A DNA stretch of 42,979 nt from an uncultured Bacilli bacterium (GTDB taxonomy: Bacteria; Bacillota_I; Bacilli_A; RF39; UBA660), in NCBI GenBank assembly GCA_947629375.1, contig CANRDN010000016.1:1-42979 (forward strand). The letters run 5' to 3'. The position numbers and the translations under genes were made by a program. Each line of letters opens with the position of its first letter. Within the stretch, counting starts at the first letter, position 1. The notes below the pieces were generated by a model, which had not been told where the DNA came from, did no database searches, and saw only the letters and a list, made by a program, of their open reading frames with translations. Positions 4,881-41,729 of this stretch are shown in pieces.

Positions 4881-4903
4881 TATGTTACTTTTATTTTTTC
4901 CAA

Positions 4904-4937
4904 CAAAAAAATCTTCCGATTATCAATCAGAAGATTT
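4904..4937 (-). terminator. Terminator of the small basic protein gene
   Basis: Minus-strand hairpin (AAATCTTCTGAT / ATCGGAAGATTT with a 5-nt loop) ending in a run of seven T. It overlaps the stop codon of the 68-aa gene. Confidence 0.8.
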
Positions 4938-5129
4938 CCTGATGAAATTTTTAATCAAATTTGAATAACGTCTGTCATCCGGTTTCTGAAGCACACGTCT
5001 TATAGAGCCTGTTCTTCCTGCACCGCCGGTAAAATCAGAACTTACAGCCTTAGATGTAATGTTTTTAAACGCTGTCGTAACAGGTGTACCCGCCTTATTT
5101 GGAATGGTATCGAATATATCATCAAACAT
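4923..5129 (-). CDS. Small basic protein, unknown
   Basis: A 68-aa product with an acidic N-terminal turn (MFDDIFDTIPNK) and a basic C-terminal half (RRVLQKPDDRRYSNLIKNF). AGAAAGCGGTG lies 8 nt before the ATG and a terminator overlaps its end, so it is a monocistronic unit. No family recognised; no signal peptide or membrane segment. Confidence 0.6.
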   Translation of the reverse strand: MFDDIFDTIPNKAGTPVTTAFKNITSKAVSSDFTGGAGRTGSIRRVLQKPDDRRYSNLIKNFIRKSSD

Positions 5130-5268
5130 ATGTTTTCACCGCTTTCTGTGTATCTATATTATAAACATAGCTTAACTTATTTTTGTCAAAAAAGCAAGAA
5201 CCAAATCATTTATGTGCATACTGCACAAAAAATACATTGAAAAATTATAACATTCCACGAACCGATAA

Positions 5269-5297
5269 TAGACAAATACGTCATAAAATGTTATAAT
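5269..5297 (+). promoter_or_regulatory. Promoter of the disrupted small gene
   Basis: TAGACA (5269-5274), 17-nt spacer, TATAAT (5292-5297), 37 nt upstream of ATG 5334. Confidence 0.6.
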
Positions 5298-5333
5298 ATA
5301 TTCGTAAACAAAAAGAAAAGGAGAAATGAAAGT

Positions 5334-5513
5334 ATGTTTACAACAGAAATTTTCAGCAAAACAGACTGTGCTATCAAAAGAGGTACAGTGATTGAGCTTC
5401 GAGGTCATGACGCTGTAGTTAAAACTGATGATAACAAAATCATAAATACAAAATACGATAAAGATTCAAAGATGTTTGTTGAAACTAAGCTACCGCAATC
5501 CCACCGGCTTTAA
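5334..5513 (+). pseudogene. Small gene interrupted near its 3' end by an IS200/IS605-type miniature element
   Basis: ATG 5334 follows AAAAGGAGA. As it stands the frame gives 59 aa, but the last residues (LPQSHRL) come from the left end of an inserted element. If the bases between the two ACTAAGC copies (5484-5490 and 5689-5695) are removed with one copy, the frame continues as ETKRQTVH and stops at 5710-5712, six bases before a strong terminator. That places promoter, gene of about 57 codons and terminator in one normal unit. The product starts MFTTEIFSKTDCAIKRG; no family recognised. The current truncated product may still be made. Confidence 0.6.
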
Positions 5514-7358: not shown

Positions 7359-8291
7359 ATGAAGATAATAAATGATAGAAATTTTGAATACACAGTCGAT
7401 GACACCGCTATAGTCATCGGCTATATAGGTTATGAAGACAGCGGCAGCTGCACAATACCATCCGAAATCGATGGAAAACCGGTTACATCCATAGGCTATG
7501 GTGCTTTCAATGGATGCAAACTATCAAATATAATTATTCCTGACAGTGTAACATCAATAGGTGAGTATGCGTTTGAAAACTGTAAAAATCTCAAAAGTAT
7601 TAATATTCCCAAGAATGTTACCGAAATAAGAGCCGGTACATTTGAAAATTGTACAAAACTGTCAGATATAACAATACCTGACAGTATAACATCGATAGGT
7701 GATTTTGCGTTTCTGGATTGTCACTCATTAACAAGCATAACTATACCCGGCAGTGTTAAAGAAATAGGCGAGTCCGCTTTCCACACAACAGGGCTGACGA
7801 GTATAACGATACCGGACAGTGTTGAAGAAATAGGCGGCTGGGCATTTTTCGGATGTGATGATCTGGAGAGTGCAACGATATCCGGCAGTGTTAAATCAAT
7901 CGGTGAATTATCGTTTTTCGGATGCAACAATCTGAAAAATGTAACATTATCTGAGGGTATTGAGTCGATAGCCCCTCATGCATTCGCCAACACGGGACTA
8001 ATCGATATCACGATACCAAGCAGTGTTAAATCAATAGGTGATCTTGCATTTTTCGGCTGTAGTGAGCTGAAGAATGTAATATTATCCGACGGTATCGAAG
8101 AAATAGGCGATATTACATTCGCCCACACAAAACTGTCAGACGTAACAATACCCGACAGCGTTACCAAGATAGGTGCGGGTATATTTGACGGTTGCGATAA
8201 CATAACTATTCACGGTTGTTCAAAAAACAGTTATGCCGAAATTTACGCAGAGGAAAACGGCATACCATTTGCTGAAGTAAATACTAACTGA
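7359..8291 (+). CDS. BspA-type leucine-rich-repeat protein (LRR paralogue 1)
   Basis: A predicted 310-aa protein. A short beta cap (FEYTVDDTAIVIGYIGYE) leads to IPSEIDGKPVTSIGYGAF and then about ten LRR_5/BspA repeats of 22-23 residues with the consensus 'LTSITIPDSVTSIGxxAFxxC'. BspA-like repeats mediate binding to host matrix or other cells in several species. Here no signal peptide, anchor or membrane segment is visible, so the protein is either cytoplasmic or exported by an unusual route. The last repeat is degenerate and ends in NGIPFAEVN. The ribosome binding site is AAAGGAG. It is the first of four tandem paralogues. Confidence 0.85.
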   Translation: MKIINDRNFEYTVDDTAIVIGYIGYEDSGSCTIPSEIDGKPVTSIGYGAFNGCKLSNIIIPDSVTSIGEYAFENCKNLKSINIPKNVTEIRAGTFENCTKLSDITIPDSITSIGDFAFLDCHSLTSITIPGSVKEIGESAFHTTGLTSITIPDSVEEIGGWAFFGCDDLESATISGSVKSIGELSFFGCNNLKNVTLSEGIESIAPHAFANTGLIDITIPSSVKSIGDLAFFGCSELKNVILSDGIEEIGDITFAHTKLSDVTIPDSVTKIGAGIFDGCDNITIHGCSKNSYAEIYAEENGIPFAEVNTN

Positions 8292-8330
8292 AAACAGTTA
8301 TGCATCCAATAAAAATAATATGAGTATAAT

Positions 8331-8356
8331 GGCACTGCCCGCACTTGGGCGGTGCC
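8331..8356 (+). promoter_or_regulatory. Conserved 5'-leader hairpin, copy 1
   Basis: GGCACTGCCC / GGGCGGTGCC around GCACTT, 30 nt before the next LRR gene. It belongs to a four-copy family (also 10189, 11841, 12463). It could terminate the upstream gene but lacks a good T run. Confidence 0.5.
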
Positions 8357-8385
8357 ATATTTATTAAAGAAAAGGGGTTAATCTT

Positions 8386-10017
8386 ATGGTAAAATCTATA
8401 AATAACTATAAATACAAGACTGATGATGAAACTGTAACAATCGTGGCTTATGTCGGCGAAAACGAACATATTACTGTTCCGTCTGAAATCGAAGGAAAAC
8501 CTGTTACGAAAATAGATTCTTACGCATTCAGCCTGTGTAAAAATCTAATAAATATAATTATACCGGATAGTGTTAAATCAATAGAAAGTTACGCATTCAA
8601 CAGTTGTGCCAAACTGATGAACGTAACAATATCTGATAATGTCACGGAGATAGAACCGTGGACATTCTCTTATTGTAAAAAATTAATAAACGTAACAATA
8701 GGAAAAAATATTGCATCCATTGCCGGTAATGCGTTTGAGCACTGCAATGAATTAATAAGTATACGTATTGATAAAAATAACAAAAATTATACATCTGAAG
8801 ATGGTGTTTTATTTAACAAAAATAAGTCCATCTTAATCAGGTGTCCTGAAGGCAAAAAGGGTGCTTACATCATACCCGACAGCGTTAAAACAATAGATTG
8901 GAGTGCATTCGAAAACTGCACAGATTTGACAAGCATAACAATGCCCGACAGTGTAACACATATAGAAGCTCATGCGTTTCAAAATTGTACAAAACTGACA
9001 AGTATAAGAATATCTAAAAATATCACAACAATAGGCTGGTCTGTGTTCGAAAACTGTATTGAATTAACAAATATAATCATACCCGACAGCGTTACGAAGA
9101 TAGATCCTTGGGCATTCAGAGATTGTACAAAACTGACAAACGTAATAATACCTGATAGCGTTACAGAAATAAGCATTGGTGCATTCCAAAACTGTACAGA
9201 ATTAACAAATGTAATTATACCCTACAGTGTTGAAGTAATAGATGCTTATGCGTTTGAAGGCTGCAAAAAATTAGAAAAGGTTGTATTACCAGCAACTGCA
9301 AAAGTCGACGAAAGTACATTCACCGGCTGTCCTATGACTTGCCCTGCGAATATGACAGACGGTGACTTCAAGTATGAAATCAATATTTACAATACTGTAC
9401 GGATTACAAAATACATCGGCAAGGGAAACAAGAACGTCATTATTCCATCCAAAATTGACGGAAAAATTGTTACTGAGATCGGTGATTCGGCATTTGAAAA
9501 CTGTACTGACCTGATAAGCATAATAATACCTGACAGTATTAGTTCGATAGAAAATTATACATTTAAAGGCTGTTCAAAACTAACAAACATAAACATACCT
9601 AACAGCGTTACAAAAATAGGTCATTATGCATTCTCCGGTTGTGCGGCACTGGCAAATATAATAATACCTGATAGTATTGCATCAATCGGTCAAAATATAT
9701 TTGACCGTTGTACAGAATTGACAAATGTAATAATAGAAGAGGGTATTACGGAAATAGGCAGCGGTATGTTCAGCGGATGTACAAGACTAAAAAATATAAT
9801 AATACCTGATACTGTTATGTCGATAGACGCTTATGCATTTTATAATTGCACAAAGCTGACAAGCATAACGATACCGAATAGTGTTATTGAGATAGGTGAC
9901 TCTGCATTTCGTGATTGTGCAGAACTAACAGATATAACAATACCGGACAGTGTTACAAAGATAGGTCCGTTTGTATTTCTCGGTTGTACGGGACTATCAG
10001 ATGAAGATGATATATGA
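8386..10017 (+). CDS. BspA-type leucine-rich-repeat protein (LRR paralogue 2)
   Basis: A predicted 543-aa protein with two LRR blocks. Residues about 1-300 hold a cap (VTIVAYVGENEHITVPSEI), repeats, a YTSEDGVLFNKNKSILIR insertion typical of BspA-like proteins, and more repeats. A second cap-like segment near residue 325 (YEINIYNTVRITKYIGKG, then IPSKIDGKIVTEIG) starts a second block of about eight repeats. The protein therefore looks like a tandem fusion of two paralogue-sized units. It has no signal peptide. AAAGGGG lies 8 nt before the ATG. A terminator hairpin follows. Confidence 0.85.
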   Translation: MVKSINNYKYKTDDETVTIVAYVGENEHITVPSEIEGKPVTKIDSYAFSLCKNLINIIIPDSVKSIESYAFNSCAKLMNVTISDNVTEIEPWTFSYCKKLINVTIGKNIASIAGNAFEHCNELISIRIDKNNKNYTSEDGVLFNKNKSILIRCPEGKKGAYIIPDSVKTIDWSAFENCTDLTSITMPDSVTHIEAHAFQNCTKLTSIRISKNITTIGWSVFENCIELTNIIIPDSVTKIDPWAFRDCTKLTNVIIPDSVTEISIGAFQNCTELTNVIIPYSVEVIDAYAFEGCKKLEKVVLPATAKVDESTFTGCPMTCPANMTDGDFKYEINIYNTVRITKYIGKGNKNVIIPSKIDGKIVTEIGDSAFENCTDLISIIIPDSISSIENYTFKGCSKLTNINIPNSVTKIGHYAFSGCAALANIIIPDSIASIGQNIFDRCTELTNVIIEEGITEIGSGMFSGCTRLKNIIIPDTVMSIDAYAFYNCTKLTSITIPNSVIEIGDSAFRDCAELTDITIPDSVTKIGPFVFLGCTGLSDEDDI

Positions 10018-10028
10018 CAGAAATAAAA

Positions 10029-10066
10029 GGGGAACATGGCGAAAGCTGTGTTCCCCTATTTTTTTT
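10029..10066 (+). terminator. Terminator after LRR paralogue 2
   Basis: GGGGAACATGGC / GCTGTGTTCCCC arms with a GAAA tetraloop, then a run of T. Near-identical copies follow at 12297 and 13571. Confidence 0.9.
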
Positions 10067-10136
10067 CTCGGCAAAGTCACTACAAACTTCTAAATTCATG
10101 TTGGGAAAATCTATTTTATAGCAACAGATGAGTTTG

Positions 10137-10182
10137 AGGGGGGGGTGTGAGGTGGGGCGGGGAGAGTGGGGAGAGTGGGGAG
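10137..10182 (+). repeat. G-rich tract in the LRR 2-3 spacer
   Basis: Six or more runs of three to eight G on the plus strand separated by one to four bases, in an AT-rich genome. It is potentially G-quadruplex forming. The matching spacer at 12409 has a different G-rich repeat at the same place. Confidence 0.6.
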
Positions 10183-10188
10183 CAATGC

Positions 10189-10213
10189 GGCACCGTCCAA
10201 CGTGGCCGGTGCC
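10189..10213 (+). promoter_or_regulatory. Conserved 5'-leader hairpin, copy 2
   Basis: GGCACCG / CGGTGCC arms around TCCAACGTGGC, preceded by CAATGC, 40 nt before the next start codon. Confidence 0.5.
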
Positions 10214-10253
10214 TTGTCAATTTAAAAATATATACAATAAAGGGGTTAATATT

Positions 10254-11831
10254 ATGAAGAAAATTATTGATTTTGAATGGGAAATAAACGAGGACAGCAG
10301 TGTAACAATTACAGGTTATACCGGAAACGGCGGAGACGTTGTTATTCCGTCTGAAATTGACGGTAAGCCGGTTACGAAAATCGGCTATGATATGATTGAA
10401 AACGACGAGTATGGTGTGTTTGAAGATTGCACCATACTGACAAGTGTAACGATACCCGACAGTGTTACACACATAGGGTGTGCTGCATTTGCTGGTTGTA
10501 CCGGATTAACAAACATAACAATACCTGACAGTGTTACGGAGATAGATTATGATGCATTTGCCCGTTGTACCGGACTGACAAGCATAACAATACCTAACAA
10601 TGTTACACTCATAGGTGGTGCTGCATTTGCCGGTTGTACCGGACTAACAAGCATAACGATACCTGACAGTGTTACATCAATAAGTGACGGTGCATTTTCC
10701 GGTTGTACCAGACTGACAAGTATTAATGTCAATAAGGGTAACAAAAGTTATACATCAGAGAACGGTGTTCTGTTTAACAAGAACAAGACTGCTTTGATAG
10801 CATATCCCGGAGGTAGGAACGGTGCCTACATCATACCTGACAGTGTTACTGAGATAGGTGATATTGCATTTGAAAATTGTACCGGACTGACAGGTATAAC
10901 AATACCTGACAGCGTTGCCAAAATAGGTGGGTACACATTCAAAGGTTGTACCGGACTGACAAGCGTAACAATACCTGATAGCGTTACGGAGATAAACATT
11001 TATGCGTTTTCCGGTTGTACCGGACTGACAAGCGTAACTATACCTGATAGCGTTACATATATAGCTTATGCAGCATTTTCCGGTTGCACCGGACTGACAA
11101 ACATAACAATACCTAACGGTGTTGAGATGAGTGAATATGTATTTAGTGGTTGTACCGGACTGACAAGCATAACAATACCTGCAAGTGTTACCAAGATAGG
11201 TGCTCATGCGTTTGAAGAATGCACAGGACTGACAAACGTCACGATAAATGACGGCGTCACCGAAATAGGCAATTTTGCCTTTTACGGATGCCGAGGACTG
11301 ACGAACATAACCATACCGAAAACTATCACGGAAGTTGGTTACAGAGCATTCAGAGGCTGCAACAAACTTAAGACTATTAATGTTCATAAAGACAATAAAC
11401 ATTATATGTCTAAAGATGGCGTCTTGTTTGACAAAAACAAGACGCATCTAATACAGTGTCCTGCCAGCAAAGCGGGAGAATACACAGTACCGGACAGTGT
11501 TACCGAGATAGATGATTATGCATTTTCCGGTTGTACACGACTGACAAACGTAACAATACCTGACAGTGTTACATCAATAGGTTATGGTGCATTTTCAGGT
11601 TGCACACGACTGACAAGTGTAACCATACCGGACGGTGTTGCAACAATAAATGATGGCACCTTTTACGGTTGCACGAGACTGGTACGTGTAACCATATCCG
11701 ACAGCATTACGAAGATAGGCGACGATGCATTTGGCGATTGCCCCAGACTGGCATCAGTCGGCAATTTTGAGCCATACATTGAAGTGGATTCGCTCACAGA
11801 TCGTCCCGTAGAACGATACATACTGAAATGA
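10254..11831 (+). CDS. BspA-type leucine-rich-repeat protein (LRR paralogue 3)
   Basis: The start ATG 10254 follows AAAGGGG and aligns with the paralogues' KKIIDFEWEIN cap; an in-frame ATG at 10128 would translate the G-rich tract and is unlikely. The product of 525 aa has about 18 highly regular repeats (consensus 'GLTSITIPDSVTxIGxxAFSGCT') and two VLFNKNK-type insertions (KSYTSENGVLFNKNK and HYMSKDGVLFDKNK). It has no signal peptide and ends ...DRPVERYILK. The repeats are far more uniform in DNA than those of paralogues 1 and 2, pointing to recent internal duplication or gene conversion. Confidence 0.85.
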   Translation: MKKIIDFEWEINEDSSVTITGYTGNGGDVVIPSEIDGKPVTKIGYDMIENDEYGVFEDCTILTSVTIPDSVTHIGCAAFAGCTGLTNITIPDSVTEIDYDAFARCTGLTSITIPNNVTLIGGAAFAGCTGLTSITIPDSVTSISDGAFSGCTRLTSINVNKGNKSYTSENGVLFNKNKTALIAYPGGRNGAYIIPDSVTEIGDIAFENCTGLTGITIPDSVAKIGGYTFKGCTGLTSVTIPDSVTEINIYAFSGCTGLTSVTIPDSVTYIAYAAFSGCTGLTNITIPNGVEMSEYVFSGCTGLTSITIPASVTKIGAHAFEECTGLTNVTINDGVTEIGNFAFYGCRGLTNITIPKTITEVGYRAFRGCNKLKTINVHKDNKHYMSKDGVLFDKNKTHLIQCPASKAGEYTVPDSVTEIDDYAFSGCTRLTNVTIPDSVTSIGYGAFSGCTRLTSVTIPDGVATINDGTFYGCTRLVRVTISDSITKIGDDAFGDCPRLASVGNFEPYIEVDSLTDRPVERYILK

Positions 11832-11840
11832 TGGGCATAT

Positions 11841-11866
11841 GGCACTGCTCAAACATGGGCAGTGCC
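11841..11866 (+). promoter_or_regulatory. Conserved 5'-leader hairpin, copy 3
   Basis: GGCACTGC / GCAGTGCC around TCAAACATGG, upstream of the two small genes rather than an LRR gene. Confidence 0.5.
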
Positions 11867-11931
11867 TCGTTAATATAAAAACGGAAAAGAGGTGGACGCA
11901 ATGACAAAAAAAGAAAGGAGGCGTTCAAACG

Positions 11932-12096
11932 ATGAAAACATACACTGTTACACTCGAAGAAATAACAGTGTACGAAATCCCCATTCGAGCTGAATCAAAA
12001 AACGATGCTTGCAAAACAGCTCTGAAAGAAATTAGCTCAACGGGAGGATCAGACCACATAAAAGACAACGGAATAAAGGTTGTCGAGATTCAATGA
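11932..12096 (+). CDS. Small DpnD/PcfM-like protein
   Basis: A 54-aa product starting MKTYTVTLEEITVYEIPIRA and continuing ESKNDACKTALKEI, ending KDNGIKVVEIQ. A beta-strand pair followed by an 'AESKNDACKTALKE' helix resembles the short DpnD/PcfM-type proteins of mobile elements (resemblance only; function unknown). The ribosome binding site AAAGGAGG lies 9 nt before the ATG. A 14-nt gap separates it from the next small gene, so they are co-transcribed. Confidence 0.55.
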   Translation: MKTYTVTLEEITVYEIPIRAESKNDACKTALKEISSTGGSDHIKDNGIKVVEIQ

Positions 12097-12109
12097 AGGA
12101 GATATAATT

Positions 12110-12238
12110 ATGGAAAACAATAACATAAAGACGGAAATAAAGATCTATCAAATTGTGGATAATTGCGGCAACGTATATCACGTTGCTGCAAAAAGTTATT
12201 ACGAAGCCGTAAAAAAGCTTCGTGAAGAAAATTATTAA
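12110..12238 (+). CDS. Very small protein, 42 aa
   Basis: Starts with ATG after AAGGAGATATA and encodes MENNNIKTEIKIYQIVDN, then a YYEAVKKLREENY helix. The strand-then-'A-x-x-YYEAVKKL' layout repeats that of the preceding 54-aa protein, so the pair may be diverged duplicates. Supported by the good ribosome binding site and spacing; function unknown. Confidence 0.45.
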   Translation: MENNNIKTEIKIYQIVDNCGNVYHVAAKSYYEAVKKLREENY

Positions 12239-12296
12239 ACATGAATATATCCTAAACAGACGGTACAGCAAAAGCTGTATCGCCCTACGGATATAT

Positions 12297-12337
12297 CGGG
12301 GGGACATGGCGAAAGCTGTGTTCCCCCATTTTTTTTC
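12297..12337 (+). terminator. Terminator after the two small genes
   Basis: GGGGACATGGC / GCTGTGTTCCCCC hairpin with a GAAA loop, then TTTTTTTT; a near copy of the one at 10029. The next about 100 nt also repeat the 10067-10136 spacer. Confidence 0.9.
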
Positions 12338-12408
12338 TTGACAAGGTCACTGCAAACTTCCAAATTCATGTTATAAAAATCTATTTTATGGCAACAGATG
12401 AGTTTGAT

Positions 12409-12455
12409 GGGAAGTGGGAAGTGGGAAGTGGGAGGTGGGAGGGGGTAGGGGTGAG
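12409..12455 (+). repeat. G-rich tandem repeat in the spacer before LRR paralogue 4
   Basis: Tandem GGGAAGT units (three to four), then GGGAGGTGGGAGGGGGTAGG. It lies at the position equivalent to 10137-10182 but with different repeat units. Confidence 0.6.
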
Positions 12456-12462
12456 GCAATGC

Positions 12463-12487
12463 GGCACCGACCAACATGGCCGGTGCC
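12463..12487 (+). promoter_or_regulatory. Conserved 5'-leader hairpin, copy 4
   Basis: GGCACCG / CGGTGCC around ACCAACATGGC, almost identical to copy 2, 37 nt before the next ATG. Confidence 0.5.
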
Positions 12488-12524
12488 TCGTTAGTATAAA
12501 AATTATAAAAAAGGGGTTATTGGC

Positions 12525-13550
12525 ATGAGGAAGACTGTAAATTTTGAATACATCGTTGCCGAGATAAATGGTGTAGAGAATGGTATAGAAATCTTAAATT
12601 ATTCCGGAAGCGACAGCGATGTCGTTATCCCATCTAAAATTGACGGGAAACCGGTCACGGTCATAGGACCGTCGGTGTTCGGCGTGGAGGAGGACGGCAG
12701 TCACTACGGCCGTTCACACATGATCAAACACGTAATCATACCGAACAGTGTCATCGAGATAGATAATTCTGCATTCGATGATTGTACCGAACTAACACAT
12801 ATAACAATTCCTGACAGTGTTACGAAAATTGGCGAGCGGGCATTTGCTTGCAGTGGACTAACACACATAACCATACCCGACGGTGTTACGGAGATAGGTG
12901 ATGATGCGTTCGGATATTGCACCAATCTGACCAGTATCGATGTTGGTCAAAATAATAAGAATTATACATCAGAAGATGGAATCTTATTCAATAAGGATAA
13001 GACGGTTTTAATTAAGTACCCGTCTGTGAAAGCAGGTACTTACAGTGTACCAAACACTGTTACGAAAATCGAACACGGTGCATTTTACGAATGTGCTGGT
13101 CTTACAGGTATAACAATACCGAACAGTGTCACAACAATAGGTGCATCTGCGTTTAAAGGATGCACAGGACTGAAATGGGTAACGATACCTGACAGTATTA
13201 CAGAAATAAAGCCAGATACATTCAGTGACTGTACCGCCCTGAACGAAGTACATTTCTTCGGGGAAGTCACAGAAATAGGCGATTATGCTTTTCGGAATTG
13301 TACGTCCCTGACAAGCATAAACGTACCCGATACCGTCAAAAGAATTGGAGAATATGCGTTCTACAACTGTCGCTCGCTGACGACGGTAGACATAGAATTA
13401 CGAAACAATAAAGCAAAGATCGAAAGCTTTGCTTTCAGTTACTGTACGGCACTGTCAAATGTACGCATGCCCAAGCATGTCACAGTCGACGAATCAGCAT
13501 TTTCAGGCTGCTGTGACAGTATGAACATACGTAGTGCAGCTATAATTTGA
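12525..13550 (+). CDS. BspA-type leucine-rich-repeat protein (LRR paralogue 4)
   Basis: A predicted 341-aa protein. The cap is FEYIVAEINGVENGIEIL, then IPSKIDGKPVTVIG and about eleven repeats with one YTSEDGILFNKDK insertion. The C-terminus ends in a degenerate Cys-rich repeat (SGCCDSMNIRSAAII). It has no signal peptide or anchor. The ribosome binding site AAAGGGG lies 9 nt before ATG. It is the most diverged of paralogues 2-4 in its central repeats (KWVTIPDSITEIKPDTFSDC), and closes the LRR array. Confidence 0.85.
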   Translation: MRKTVNFEYIVAEINGVENGIEILNYSGSDSDVVIPSKIDGKPVTVIGPSVFGVEEDGSHYGRSHMIKHVIIPNSVIEIDNSAFDDCTELTHITIPDSVTKIGERAFACSGLTHITIPDGVTEIGDDAFGYCTNLTSIDVGQNNKNYTSEDGILFNKDKTVLIKYPSVKAGTYSVPNTVTKIEHGAFYECAGLTGITIPNSVTTIGASAFKGCTGLKWVTIPDSITEIKPDTFSDCTALNEVHFFGEVTEIGDYAFRNCTSLTSINVPDTVKRIGEYAFYNCRSLTTVDIELRNNKAKIESFAFSYCTALSNVRMPKHVTVDESAFSGCCDSMNIRSAAII

Positions 13551-24202: not shown

Positions 24203-25354
24203 ATGAAAACAGTAAGGACTGCAATAATATTACTAAAACCTGATAAAATGCAATCTAATAAACTAATGAGAATGAGCGGTTGTGCAAGGGTATGTTACAA
24301 TATGTTACTCGATTATTGGAGTCACATCTATGAAACTCAACAGCGTAAGCCGACTGTACAAGAGATGAGGGAGTACATTAACGAGATAAAATGTACAGAG
24401 GGTTACGAATGGATGTCCGATTTAGAGTATCACATAATGAACAGTATCATAAGCACTGTAATCACAGCGTTCACACGTTTCTTTAAAGGGGTAGCCAGGC
24501 ATCCCAAAAGACATAAAAAGAATCGTAACCACATCAGTTTTCCCATTAGGTGTGACAGATTTAAGTTTTACAATGGAAAGAGGAATATTATTGCAGTACC
24601 CAATGTAGGTAGAATGTCTTATAAGTACCTATCAAAATTCCCTATAACCTCTTTTAAAAAGGCAACAGTAGTTTTCGATGGTAAATGTTGGTATCTAAAG
24701 ATTGCTACTGATGTAGAGTATGATACAGGGGTAAGGGACGGCAGGATAGGTATTGACTTGGGGTATCGAACATTAGCTACAATTTACGATGGTAAGACAA
24801 TTAACATGGTTGACAATATCATGTTTTCTCAAAAGTCTAAAAAGGAACAAAACCTAATAGATAATGTAAACAAACTTGTTTTACGTCTGAAAAACATTGA
24901 CAGATTGATAGCCGAAAAGAAAAAGTCAAACCTCACGTCTAACAATATTGACAGGTTATACAGAAAAAGAGCAAAATTATGTAGACGTGTAGCCAACATT
25001 CAGAACTCTTATCTGCATAAGGTATCTAAAGAGATTGTAAGCAGTCTACCAGAGGAAATTGTCCTCGAAACTCTTGATATTTCAGAGCAAAAAGACCGTC
25101 ATGGAATACTACCTGAGAAGTACAAAACTACTGCATTGTACAAGTTTTATTCTTACATTGTTTACAAGGCACAACAGCATGGTATAGACATAATTCTTGC
25201 AGACAAGTATTACCCGTCCACAAAGATGTGTCACAGGTGTAAGAGACTAAACAACATAGGAGGGGATAAGACATACAGGTGTTCCTGTGGTTTGGTGATA
25301 GATAGAGATATAAACGCATCAATAAATTTATACAATTATGGTGCAAACTATTGA
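24203..25354 (+). CDS. tnpB: TnpB RNA-guided nuclease of the IStron
   Basis: A predicted 383-aa protein, full length for the IS605-type family. The N-terminal domain contains MSGCARVCYNMLLDYW. The RuvC nuclease residues are intact: Asp185 in GIDLGYRTLA, Glu289 in VLETLDIS and DRD (367-369) in VIDRDINASINLY. The zinc ribbon is CHRC...CSCG. TnpB proteins cut DNA next to a short flanking motif using an RNA made from the right end of the element, and so help keep the element in place. With all catalytic residues present it is probably active. The start ATG 24203 lacks a clear ribosome binding site. Confidence 0.93.
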   Translation: MKTVRTAIILLKPDKMQSNKLMRMSGCARVCYNMLLDYWSHIYETQQRKPTVQEMREYINEIKCTEGYEWMSDLEYHIMNSIISTVITAFTRFFKGVARHPKRHKKNRNHISFPIRCDRFKFYNGKRNIIAVPNVGRMSYKYLSKFPITSFKKATVVFDGKCWYLKIATDVEYDTGVRDGRIGIDLGYRTLATIYDGKTINMVDNIMFSQKSKKEQNLIDNVNKLVLRLKNIDRLIAEKKKSNLTSNNIDRLYRKRAKLCRRVANIQNSYLHKVSKEIVSSLPEEIVLETLDISEQKDRHGILPEKYKTTALYKFYSYIVYKAQQHGIDIILADKYYPSTKMCHRCKRLNNIGGDKTYRCSCGLVIDRDINASINLYNYGANY

Positions 25355-38594: not shown

Positions 38595-39848
38595 ATGGAT
38601 TTGCTTCAAGAATTTTTCAGCAAAGCTCGTTGGGAAAAAGCCATCGCTGACGGTGTAGAAAAAGGTATCAATCTCCCGGAATTATGCGAACCCGAACGAA
38701 GACTTGAAATTTACAGACGTATTCGTGACAGAAATTATACTATATCGCCCCCTCATGAAGCTCTTATTCCGAAAGATGACGGAACGTATCGCACTGTTTA
38801 TGTAAACACGGATACAGACCGTATTCTGTTATCGATATATAATGATATGATGTTTGACTTATGTCATGAAATAATACATCCGGCATGTACCAGTTACCAA
38901 AAGGGTATCGGGTGCGGAAAGATTGTTATGCGTATATCAAAAATAATACAAAACATCAATACCGCTGATAACAGAATCGGGGTGAAAGTAGACCTGTCAA
39001 AATATTTCGATTCTGTTCCGATAGAATTTATTGACGAAATATTTGCATACATCGACAATAAATTCGGAAAATCACCTGTAACCGAGATGGTTAAAAATTA
39101 TTATCATACAAATACAGTGTTTGATTTGGACAAAAATCTGATTTCAAAATATTCGTCATTGCGACAAGGCTGTGCGTTTGCCGCATTTCTTGCCGATGCC
39201 GTTCTGTATGATATTGATTGCCGTTTGTCAAAAATGGACGTTCTATACGTCAGATATTCTGATGATATACTCATTATCGGACAGGATTGGCAAAAAGGAT
39301 ACGACTGTCTGCAAGAAATGTTATCAAAGAAAAATCTTATATTAAATCCTAAAAAAGTTGAAATCTTATATAACAACCAATGGTTTAAATTTTTAGGATT
39401 TATGATAAACGGCGATAAAATCAGTCTTTCAAAAAGTCGTTTAAAATCTTTTCAAAAAGAGATTGAAAAACGAACGATAAAGAATAACACATCCGATTTA
39501 CAGAAAATATTAACCCGTGTATATGATTATATGTATCGTGGCAACGGACATTACAGTTGGGCGACTTCGGTACTGCCCGTAATCAATGTAGAGGCTGATA
39601 TAAATACTTTAAACGGATTTATAATGGATTCGATACGTGCAGCCTATACAGGAAAATATCATATCGGCGGTCTTGGTCTTGCAACAAACAAACCCGATTC
39701 CGTTATCATCAGAGGAAAGGGTAAAAATGTAAAAAGCAATCGTCAAAAATTACCGCAAATACCGGGTTACCATACGGTTTTATGTATGAAAAAAATACTG
39801 ACAACATCAAAAGAATTATATGATACTATAGTACGAACAAAAATGTAA
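38595..39848 (+). CDS. Reverse transcriptase (group II-like/unknown group) with YSDD active site
   Basis: About 417 aa from ATG 38595 (ACGGAAGTGA 7 nt upstream). RT blocks are visible: ALIPKDDGTYRTVYV (RT1), VKVDLSKYFDSVPIEF (RT3), SLRQGCAFAAFLADAVLY (RT4) and YVRYSDDILIIG (RT5, YSDD in place of YADD), then NPKKVEILYNNQWFKFLGF (RT6/7). A 'thumb'-like helical end follows. The QG-x-x-F-A-A-F motif differs from the usual QGxxxSP. There is no maturase, HNH or nitrilase domain. It does not fit DGR RTs or retrons clearly. A large structured RNA follows immediately, and RNA and RT may be partners (inference). Confidence 0.8.
   Translation: MDLLQEFFSKARWEKAIADGVEKGINLPELCEPERRLEIYRRIRDRNYTISPPHEALIPKDDGTYRTVYVNTDTDRILLSIYNDMMFDLCHEIIHPACTSYQKGIGCGKIVMRISKIIQNINTADNRIGVKVDLSKYFDSVPIEFIDEIFAYIDNKFGKSPVTEMVKNYYHTNTVFDLDKNLISKYSSLRQGCAFAAFLADAVLYDIDCRLSKMDVLYVRYSDDILIIGQDWQKGYDCLQEMLSKKNLILNPKKVEILYNNQWFKFLGFMINGDKISLSKSRLKSFQKEIEKRTIKNNTSDLQKILTRVYDYMYRGNGHYSWATSVLPVINVEADINTLNGFIMDSIRAAYTGKYHIGGLGLATNKPDSVIIRGKGKNVKSNRQKLPQIPGYHTVLCMKKILTTSKELYDTIVRTKM
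39798..39827 (+). promoter_or_regulatory. Candidate promoter for the large RNA, inside the RT 3' end
   Basis: CTGACA (39798-39803), 18-nt spacer, GATACT (39822-39827). Both boxes differ from consensus by one or two bases; the predicted start near 39834 is about 45 nt before the RNA's closing stem. Confidence 0.4.
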
Positions 39849-39877
39849 TGTACAGTGTACATCTGCAACGCAGCAGA

Positions 39878-40550
39878 ATGATATCATGCGTGCTAATTTC
39901 AATAGCACACTCGGTCTAACGACCTCGTTTGCTATTGAAATGTATAATCGGGCTATCTGTTATGGAAGATGACGAGGAGGATGCTCTTTGATCAACTGGG
40001 ATAAGACGCCTCATGACACAAGTAATTCTGGTACCTGTAAAACCTGAATGTCCCCTACGACGATGACAGAAGGAGAAATGGAATAATCAGCTGAAAGAAT
40101 CTCATACCTGCACAGTCAATAGCGAATGAGTCAAGATGGCTGGATACCTAAAAGTATACCTAAGTGGTTAGTAAGAATACTCAAATGAACAGCTTAATGA
40201 TACGTGCAGCAGAAATGATCAAATGATCAGATGCAACAGAACATTGTAGATGAAGACGAAGTCTGAATGAAGGCGGAAATTAACTTGGGCTAATGGGTTA
40301 CTGAAGAACTAAACAAACAAATAATAATTTACAAGAATTAATCATGAAAGTTCAATGTGCCCATAGAAACTATTCAGGAGTGACATGATAATGATCATGG
40401 AAGCAATCATATAGACTCAAGCAGATGATGCTAAATTTGAAACGTCTACTAAACTTGAAGAACTGATTAACCATTATATCTAATTATACAAGTAATTTAT
40501 ACTAATTGAAACATTTATAGAAATGCGTATACAGCACGCAGAGTATCATT
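39878..40550 (+). ncRNA. Large structured non-coding RNA candidate (673 nt, closed by a terminal stem)
   Basis: No credible coding frame lies between 39849 and 40588. The ends pair: AATGAT (39878-39883) with ATCATT (40545-40550) and GCGTGCT (39889-39895) with AGCACGC (40533-40539), separated by matching 5-nt internal loops. Just inside, TTTCAATAGC (39898-39907) pairs with GCTATTGAAA (39932-39941) around a GGTC/GACC hairpin. Many small stem-loops and GA-rich joints follow. Base composition is more even than the flanks. The size, closed shape and mobile-element setting resemble the ROOL and GOLLD RNA classes of phages and gut/rumen Firmicutes (memory of their features, not a match); a novel RNA or RT partner is possible. 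Confidence 0.65.
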
Positions 40551-40588
40551 AATATTTATGTATCATATACAAATCGAGGTGATAATTT

Positions 40589-41008
40589 ATATTAATTATT
40601 AATTTCATAACACGAACCGTTATAAATCGTTCTGCTAAGTCATCAAAAGACGATATATACCTTATTGAAAACGGAAGACCTGTAAACGGATTTACAATAC
40701 GGCAAACACCTGTAACTTTTGAAGAGTTGGAGATGTTATATACTAAATACAAATACTCATTGCCGACACCCGAAAACCGTTATGATAAATCATACTTTAA
40801 AGCCCTTGAAATACACGATATTCCGCTCGATAAATTGGTCAACGATAAAGATTCCCGGCAAAAAGCAAAGGAAGAACTTGAATTGACCTTTCTCATGGGT
40901 GTATTGAACGGCAGTATTATTTGGCCTGATGATAAAAAATGGTTCATACAATCCGACACTGATAAAGACTTTATCATTTTACGAGAATGGGTAACGGGCA
41001 GCTGCTGA
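40589..41008 (+). CDS. Hypothetical protein, 139 aa, no canonical start codon
   Basis: The frame encodes ILIINFITRTVINRSAKSSK, then DDIYLIENGRPVNGFTIRQ, EIHDIPLDKLVNDKDS and LTFLMGVLNGSIIWPDDKKW. Protein-like sequence runs well upstream of the first in-frame TTG (40727), yet codons 40586-40724 contain no ATG, GTG or TTG. GAGGTG (40576-40581) is 7 nt before ATA 40589, making ATA the best start candidate; ATT at 40595 or 40598 is possible. A 16-nt half of the 20515 palindrome overlaps the start region (40593-40608). No domain recognised. It ends 31 nt before the next gene. Confidence 0.6.
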   Translation: MLIINFITRTVINRSAKSSKDDIYLIENGRPVNGFTIRQTPVTFEELEMLYTKYKYSLPTPENRYDKSYFKALEIHDIPLDKLVNDKDSRQKAKEELELTFLMGVLNGSIIWPDDKKWFIQSDTDKDFIILREWVTGSC

Positions 41009-41039: not shown

Positions 41040-41729
41040 ATGTCTGATTTGGACGGCATTGAACAAATGCTGATTAACGAGTATATCTATAATGACAAAG
41101 TATCCCGCAAATGGCTTACATGCCAAACACTCCGTCATATAAACGATTTCGATGAATATTTCATACAAAACAAACCCTATTACTATACATGGAAAACGGC
41201 TTTGAACGAATACAAATCCGCCACCAAAATATCCGACGGAGAGAAAAAGAATCGATATATGTTCTTTAACAAAGCTGTTATTTTTGAAATGCTCAAAGAT
41301 TACAAAAACAATTTGCAATCTTACTTAAATACCAAATTGAGTAAATGCATTTCTGTTAAAATCAAATATTGTTCTCCTATTACAAAAGATTCAATGCCCG
41401 CACTCATGTCCGGTATTGACGCTGTTAAACATAAACTCAAAACGGCTCGCAATGCTCAGAATTTTCTTAAAATTTTAAAAAATTTTACAGAAAAATTTCC
41501 CATGTATATACCTCTTCCAAAATCTGATGCATGGAAAAAAGCGTTTAAATCACAGGGTGCATATTATACGCTTTTACATCTTGTAAAATTCTACGATTTG
41601 CAAATTGACAGCAAAGATAAAAAGGCATCGCTTGAAATATTAAAACATATTGCTCAAACGACACCTGAACATTTATTCGATATTTTGCAAAAATCAGTAA
41701 AAGAAAGCGAAGTGATCATATCTACATGA
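41040..41729 (+). CDS. Hypothetical helical protein before rarA, 229 aa
   Basis: ATG 41040 lies 13 nt after AAAAAGGATG. The product is Lys-rich and mostly helical (ALNEYKSATKISDGEKKNRY; AVKHKLKTARNAQNFLKIL) with a C-terminal helix bundle (LHLVKFYDLQIDSKDKKA). There is no signal peptide or known motif. The stop overlaps the rarA start (ATGA), so the two are translationally coupled; a partner of RarA or of the replication machinery is a reasonable inference. It could be a diverged clamp-loader-like subunit, but nothing in the sequence proves it. Confidence 0.6.
   Translation: MSDLDGIEQMLINEYIYNDKVSRKWLTCQTLRHINDFDEYFIQNKPYYYTWKTALNEYKSATKISDGEKKNRYMFFNKAVIFEMLKDYKNNLQSYLNTKLSKCISVKIKYCSPITKDSMPALMSGIDAVKHKLKTARNAQNFLKILKNFTEKFPMYIPLPKSDAWKKAFKSQGAYYTLLHLVKFYDLQIDSKDKKASLEILKHIAQTTPEHLFDILQKSVKESEVIIST

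What the first reader, a model, noticed from the sequence alone, without database searches (positions are those of the whole stretch)
39798..40588. 673-nt closed RNA domain beside a reverse transcriptase
The gene-free block after the RT has ends that pair (AATGAT with ATCATT, GCGTGCT with AGCACGC, both flanking 5-nt loops), a perfect 10-bp inner stem and many smaller hairpins. That is the mark of a large ornate RNA, not of a decayed gene. Size and setting resemble ROOL/GOLLD RNAs. Adjacency to an RT with a YSDD site raises the second option that the RNA is its template or cofactor.
Basis: partly seen in the sequence, partly recalled or inferred. Interest (0 to 1): 0.82.

Follow-up and report, generated by a model that had tools for sequence, protein, structure and literature searches.

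The report
Reverse transcriptase with paired pseudoknot RNA
The gene-free stretch beside this reverse transcriptase holds one member of an undescribed family of small knotted RNAs that gut phages carry in rows next to the same unusual enzyme, so it is most likely the enzyme's RNA partner, here stretched by an unexplained 571-base insert.

Summary
The RT (38595-39848) is UG27 (PADLOC E 9e-176), followed by UG27's accessory genes RTas346 and RTas337. In relatives (mostly Bacteroidota phages and prophages) the same gap, and a second slot after RTas337, hold a row of up to about 8 divergent 105-220-nt RNAs with one shared pseudoknotted fold. The fold is strongly supported: all 24 pairs covary, and the pseudoknot, left out of the search model, is 96.6% paired in 86 independent units. 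Genome-wide, 94 of 95 hits lie beside a UG27 RT. No Rfam family matches. The window's closing stems are this fold's P2a/P2b; P0, the P0-loop pseudoknot, UUCA and the 3' motif are also there. The window scores highest in both strands of the 43 kb and above 400 shuffles. Its two halves are split by 571 nt between ATTGAAA repeats; without that the unit is 118 nt, like those of its nearest RT relatives, and folds with z -7.5. The interior itself folds no better than chance. Most likely the RNA is the RT's bound cofactor and probably its template, by analogy with Class 2 UG systems. Template, product and phage defence are untested.

The parts
38595..39848 (+). Reverse transcriptase of family UG27 (YSDD active site, 417 aa)
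   Evidence: PADLOC RT_UG27 E 9.4e-176, next best UG26 2e-36 and UG17 1e-27; Pfam RVT_1 2.4e-24
39862..39877 (+). P0 hairpin TCTGC[AACGCA]GCAGA, 5' end of the RNA unit
   Evidence: descriptor scan and fold; P0 covaries in relatives
39867..39872 (+). P0 loop AACGCA, 5' strand of pseudoknot P1
   Evidence: pairs with UGCGU at 40524-40528; the P1 helix covaries in 129 units of relatives
39877..39894 (+).
   Evidence: pair I2; homologous helices covary
39898..39901 (+). UUCA, the UUYA element present in nearly every unit, after P2b
   Evidence: UU in 86/86 and A in 85/86 aligned units
39896..39941 (+). Hairpin (variable S arm of the unit), 21-nt arms 86% complementary
   Evidence: pair I1; folds as the S arm in the compact unit
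39934..39940 (+). Left copy of direct repeat ATTGAAA
   Evidence: sequence
39941..40511 (+). 571-nt insert of unknown nature, splitting the unit; no coding frame, no significant fold, no homologue found
40505..40511 (+). Right copy of direct repeat ATTGAAA, start of the 3' motif
   Evidence: sequence
40505..40523 (+). 3' motif ATTGAAACATTTATAGAAA (family consensus AUAUGAAACAANUAAAGAAA)
40524..40528 (+). UGCGU, 3' strand of pseudoknot P1
40533..40550 (+). 3' strands of P2b (AGCACGC) and P2a (TATCATT); 3' end of the unit
40576..41008 (+). RTas346 accessory gene; GAGGTGA at 40576; frame opens at 40586 without ATG/GTG/TTG before 40727 (ATA 40589 or ATT 40595 possible)
   Evidence: PADLOC RTas346 E 7.6e-27; translation
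41040..41729 (+). RTas337 accessory gene, short form without the N-terminal zinc-ribbon region
   Evidence: PADLOC RTas337 E 4.2e-26; alignment A8

Best explanation
The RNA is the non-coding partner of the UG27 reverse transcriptase. It belongs to an undescribed RNA family whose core is a 5' hairpin (P0) with a roughly 6-nt loop, a pseudoknot (P1) between that loop and a site just 5' of the closing strand, a two-part closing helix (P2a/P2b), a UUYA element, a variable hairpin arm (S) and a 3' motif AUAUGAAAC-N3-4-UAAAG (helices shown by covariation). In other UG27 loci such units stand in a row of up to about eight, in two slots: RT to RTas346, and after RTas337 (shown). The window has one unit in slot 1, split by a 571-nt insert (the ends are shown; 'insert' is inferred from the ATTGAAA repeat, the fold of the joined ends and the unit length in the nearest RT clade). 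Most likely mechanism (inferred): the operon transcript is cut into, or folds as, separate units; the RT binds the pseudoknot core of each; the invariant UUYA next to P2b marks where copying starts or sits in the active site; the RT makes a short or repeated cDNA from the RNA, perhaps primed on its conserved C-terminal Tyr/Ser; RTas346 and RTas337 act on the particle or on its product. Net role: a phage-carried system, most plausibly against rival phages.
For: RT family and accessory genes. Same gene order in about 100 loci. Tandem units. Covariation 24/24 pairs, 89% of cells paired against 60% shuffled and 30-41% slid. In 86 units from loci not used for the model, 94% paired; P1, not in the model, 96.6%. 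130 of 130 hits lie in the two slots. Genome-wide 94 of 95 hits are by a UG27 RT, the other by an RT relic. Window descriptor 86.4, best of both strands of the window (next 70.2), 400 shuffles at most 75.0. Joined ends fold z -7.47. Nearest RT clade L097/L098/L100 has 119-147-nt units. Next-closest PADLOC RT families after UG27 include DRT10 (UG17) and Drt9, which use a cis ncRNA as template (PMC12632851, PMC13174585).
Against: The covariance model itself does not find the window unit as a whole; its membership rests on a descriptor made after seeing the family. No other locus has a giant unit. Telomerase-like A-B-A' repeats are not enriched beside UUYA (40 of 86 against 43.9 shuffled), so the template is not identified. 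No expression, binding or cDNA data. The window's RTas346 has no ordinary start codon, so this copy may be decaying.
Confidence: 0.72

Rival explanations
1. The whole 689 nt is one functional, enlarged RNA of this family: the interior is a real expansion of the unit in this lineage, for example a long template, not an insert.
For: The ends fit one another perfectly although 640 nt apart, so both are kept; the 8-nt ends TGTATAAT/ATTATACA of the interior can pair; no relative closer than 54% RT identity was found to compare.
Against: Interior folds as shuffles do (z -0.44); ATTGAAA repeat at both edges; units of the other loci are all 105-221 nt; nearest RT clade has the shortest units.
Confidence: 0.25
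2. The interior is a row of decayed units: the first unit's 5' half and the last unit's 3' half remain.
For: 755 nt would hold 4-5 units; weak model traces at 40322-40391 and 40471-40534; CAAG- and GAAAC-like scraps.
Against: Halves of two different old paralogues should not fit in P1, P2a and P2b at once; the best unit inside scores below most shuffles (39.8, 37 of 60 shuffles as high).
Confidence: 0.12
3. The RNA is a structural or regulatory cofactor (scaffold, sensor of phage, or leader controlling RTas346) and is not copied into DNA.
For: No A-B-A' enrichment; units are position-specific old paralogues, as expected for distinct protein-binding or sensing RNAs.
Against: The characterised Class 2 UG RTs reported in the papers read use their cis RNA as template (PMC12632851, PMC13174585); several loci have units after RTas337, not only before RTas346.
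Confidence: 0.3
4. ROOL, GOLLD, OLE or a group II intron RNA.
For: Size and gene-free setting only.
Against: No Rfam hit at threshold in the window or relatives; at E up to 10 only unrelated snoRNA, CRISPR-repeat and lncRNA matches.
Confidence: 0.01

Closest known systems
DRT10 (UG17 RT + 137-nt ncRNA + SLATT protein; PMC12632851)
   Same: RT is among the nearest families after UG27; structured RNA in the operon's intergenic space; conserved Tyr/Ser near the RT C-terminus.
   Different: RT best fits UG27 (583 against 95 bits); no SLATT protein; accessory proteins RTas346/RTas337; many different RNAs per operon rather than one; A-B-A' pattern not enriched.
DRT9 (UG28 RT + one ncRNA, poly-dA product; PMC12483538, PMC12489045)
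   Same: Class 2-like RT with a cis RNA.
   Different: No conserved poly-U tract in UG27 units; two extra genes; row of RNAs.
DRT2 (RT + pseudoknotted ncRNA, rolling-circle template; PMC12039810)
   Same: Pseudoknotted RNA next to the RT.
   Different: One RNA per system; DRT2 score far weaker (1e-10); no evidence of a gene-making template here.
DRT3 (Class 1 + Class 2 RT pair, ncRNA with ACACAC template; PMC13174585)
   Same: Class 2 RT uses a cis ncRNA with a short conserved loop sequence.
   Different: One RT here; different accessory genes; different RNA element (UUYA).
UG27 RT family (PADLOC RT_UG27, RTas346, RTas337)
   Same: All three proteins match.
   Different: No RNA component described in the papers held here; the window's RNA has a 571-nt insert and RTas337 is short.

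Membership tests
UG27 RT system (PADLOC) | RT of profile RT_UG27 | tested here: met
   E 9.4e-176, 582.8 bits; next 123.5
UG27 RT system (PADLOC) | Accessory genes RTas346 and RTas337 in the operon | tested here: met
   E 7.6e-27 and 4.2e-26
UG27-linked RNA unit (family defined here) | P0 hairpin, P1 pseudoknot, P2a/P2b, UUYA, 3' motif, in order | tested here: met
   Score 86.4, best on both strands of the window, 400 shuffles at most 75.0
UG27-linked RNA unit (family defined here) | Position: RT to RTas346 or after RTas337 | tested here: met
   39862-40550 lies between RT and RTas346; 130/130 hits in relatives lie in these slots
UG27-linked RNA unit (family defined here) | Unit length 105-221 nt | tested here: not met
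   689 nt as it stands; 118 nt if 39941-40511 is an insert
UG27-linked RNA unit (family defined here) | Found whole by the covariance model | tested here: not met
   Only part-hits at both ends; the insert prevents a whole match
DRT10 (UG17) | UG17 RT | tested here: not met
   94.6 bits against 582.8 for UG27
DRT10 (UG17) | SLATT-domain partner | tested here: not met
   Neighbours are RTas346/RTas337, with no Pfam hit
DRT10 (UG17) | A-B-A' template pattern | tested here: inconclusive
   Not enriched in the segment after P2b; template position unknown
Class 2 UG/DRT systems | Cis-encoded structured ncRNA linked to the RT | tested here: met
Class 2 UG/DRT systems | RNA-templated cDNA synthesis | not testable with these tools
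   Needs cDNA sequencing
Class 2 UG/DRT systems | Protects against phage | not testable with these tools
   Needs plaque assays
ROOL / GOLLD / OLE / group II intron | Match to the Rfam covariance model | tested here: not met
   0 hits at gathering score; none of these at E up to 10

The most novel reading that the evidence does not exclude
UG27 systems carry a repertoire: a set of up to about eight distinct, position-specific pseudoknot RNAs that share one RT-binding core but differ in their variable arms, so one reverse transcriptase is loaded with several RNAs and makes several different cDNAs, or reads several signals. That would be a multi-RNA reverse-transcription system unlike the one-RNA DRTs and retrons.
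Probability: 0.35. Interest if true: 0.88.

Novelty: new variant of a known kind. Interest (0 to 1): 0.74.

Why it matters
Class 2 UG reverse transcriptases have yielded gene-making, homopolymer and telomerase-like DNA synthesis, each with one RNA. UG27 appears to have a whole set of RNAs per operon, absent from Rfam and from the papers searched, mostly in gut phages. With the unit, its pseudoknot and its borders defined, the question of what UG27 makes becomes directly testable, and a covariance model is in hand to find the RNA elsewhere.

Tried and rejected
Rfam at gathering score and at E up to 10: nothing relevant. tRNA/tmRNA: none. DNA similarity of the region in phages and in related genomes: none beyond trivial 29-34-nt matches. 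Single-sequence RT searches of viral and genome contigs found no relatives; an alignment was needed (against 33, 34). More UG27 RTs among 395 genomes of the class and 392 of the phylum: none. A tandem array inside the window: rejected, no further unit. DRT10-like A-B-A' template: not enriched. Folds of the accessory proteins: confident models (pLDDT 94 and 84) but no Foldseek match at E <= 0.001; second looks gave nothing for RTas346 and only helical-bundle matches (Z up to 6.7) for RTas337, too weak to name a function. Promoter and terminator scans: not clearly above chance. Literature: no UG27 RNA paper found in the held library.

Full report
1. What is in the window. The RT at 38595-39848 matches one PADLOC family far above all others, RT_UG27 (E 9.4e-176; next UG26 2e-36, UG17 1e-27, Drt9 2e-23). 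The two genes downstream match RTas346 (7.6e-27) and RTas337 (4.2e-26), RT-associated (RTas) profiles that PADLOC lists under DRT. Between RT and RTas346 lie 755 bases with no frame longer than 56 codons. The surroundings are phage-like: primase, RecD-like helicase, exonuclease, SNF2 helicase, VRR-type nuclease. The host genome is a 1.87-Mb assembly without a name.

2. Checking the observation. The closing arms (39877-39894 / 40533-40550) and the inner stem are there, and the strand folds better than shuffles (z -4.5; reverse strand -2.5). But the interior 39941-40491 alone has z -0.44, with 30 of 100 shuffles as good, so the 'many smaller hairpins' are what any such sequence gives. The structure is in the ends and the first hairpin.

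3. Relatives. Aligning the window RT with two phage RTs brought in 80 viral and 31 genome loci, the latter all Bacteroidota, with RTs 41-54% identical. Nearly all keep RT, gap, RTas346, RTas337. In a dozen loci RTas346 is fused to the RT. The gap ranges from a few bases to 3 kb, in steps, and 61 distinct gap sequences remained after clustering. A profile of one shared motif showed why: the gap is a row of units about 160-190 nt apart, and more units follow RTas337.

4. The unit and its proof. From 43 units (alignment A2) I wrote a structure with P0, pseudoknot P1, P2a, P2b and arm S. All 24 pairs show changes on both sides; 89.4% of cells pair, against 60.5% with shuffled partners and 30-41% with slid partners; P1 pairs in 96.7%. 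A covariance model without P1 (R1) was run on 56 loci not used to build it, giving 86 units at E <= 0.001. There 94.2% of cells pair, and P1, which the model could not favour, pairs in 96.6% with changes on both sides at all five pairs. A second model (R2) finds 241 units in 72 loci, every one on the operon's strand, and none in the window or 14 loci around other RTs. All 130 hits at E <= 0.01 that I classified lie in the two slots. In 16 whole genomes holding 18 UG27 RTs, 94 of 95 hits lie on a contig with a UG27 RT, up to eight in one contig; the exception lies in a phage-like contig beside a 23-residue RT relic. One genome with an RT had no hit. No Rfam family matches the units.

5. Units are distinct, not copies. 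In eight related loci, all 40 units resemble a unit of another locus (0.37-0.97 identity) more than any unit of their own row (at most 0.50), mostly at the same or a neighbouring place in the row. The row is therefore a set of old, separate RNAs rather than a homogenised repeat. UUYA after P2b is almost invariant (UU in 86/86, A in 85/86); a DRT10-like A-B-A' pattern is not enriched there.

6. The window unit. A descriptor of P0, P1, P2a, P2b and the 3' motif gives 86.4 for 39862-40550. The next best in both strands of the window is 70.2, and 400 dinucleotide shuffles of the gap reach at most 75.0; a structure-only form gave 58.8 against at most 52.6 in 150 shuffles. No other locus has a unit this long, and no further unit lies in the interior. 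The covariance models see only the two ends. ATTGAAA stands at 39934-39940, right after the S hairpin, and again at 40505-40511 inside the 3' motif. Leaving out the 571 nt between gives a 118-nt unit that folds to the canonical form (z -7.47). The RT tree places the window with L097/L098/L100 (support 93/87, long branches), whose units are among the shortest of all, 119-147 nt. I therefore read the interior as an insert. Its nature is unknown: no Rfam hit, no coding frame, no match in 243 genomes of the family. A lineage-specific expansion remains possible.

7. Mechanism. Shown: a conserved pseudoknotted RNA family tied to UG27 RTs. Inferred: the RT binds it and probably copies part of it, as reported for Class 2 UG RTs (PMC12632851, PMC13174585). 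The RT C-terminus keeps a TSRxxY-like stretch that could prime synthesis, as the C-terminal Ser/Tyr does in DRT10. RTas346 and RTas337 give confident models but no known fold by Foldseek, so their task is open. Defence against phage is inferred only from the family's company.

8. Verdict. It is a member, oddly interrupted, of an RNA family absent from Rfam and from the papers I could search. The wider pattern, one RT with a set of different RNAs, is the main result.

Noticed in passing
window 40576-40727: RTas346 has no ATG, GTG or TTG before 40727; the frame opens at 40586 behind GAGGTGA (40576), with ATA (40589) or ATT (40595) as the only near starts. All 57 relatives whose gene I delimited start with ATG. 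Decay, a frameshift or a rare start codon.
   Followed up: partly
window 41040-41729: RTas337 is 229 aa and lacks the N-terminal region that bears a CxxC...CG zinc-ribbon-like motif in many relatives (290-400 aa).
   Followed up: partly
L071, L072, L074, L076, L077, L078, L083, L085, L090, L091, L092, L118: RTas346 is fused to the C-terminus of the RT, which supports a joint function.
   Followed up: partly
L142 about 4900-5440 (G731:C17): RNA units without an RT gene, beside a 23-residue relic of a UG27 RT N-terminus: a decayed system that kept its RNAs.
   Followed up: partly
L033 5757-8729 and L073 5778-7249: The RT to RTas346 gap holds long open frames (416 and 295 codons), so other cargo can sit in this slot.
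   Followed up: no
alignment A2, variable arm of the units: The variable arm often ends in a UAUC-like apical loop and has a UUAACC/GGCAU-like internal loop; possible protein-binding sites.
   Followed up: no
L019 4989-6251 (PQ571274.1): The UG27 RT of Bacteroides phage BS-TP1 is annotated 'tail protein' in the public record.
   Followed up: yes
L062, L124: The accessory genes (L062 both, L124 RTas337) have their best matches upstream of the RT, so gene order is not fixed.
   Followed up: no
window 7359-13550: Four neighbouring genes of BspA-like leucine-rich repeats; a TnpB-like gene lies at 24203-25354.
   Followed up: no
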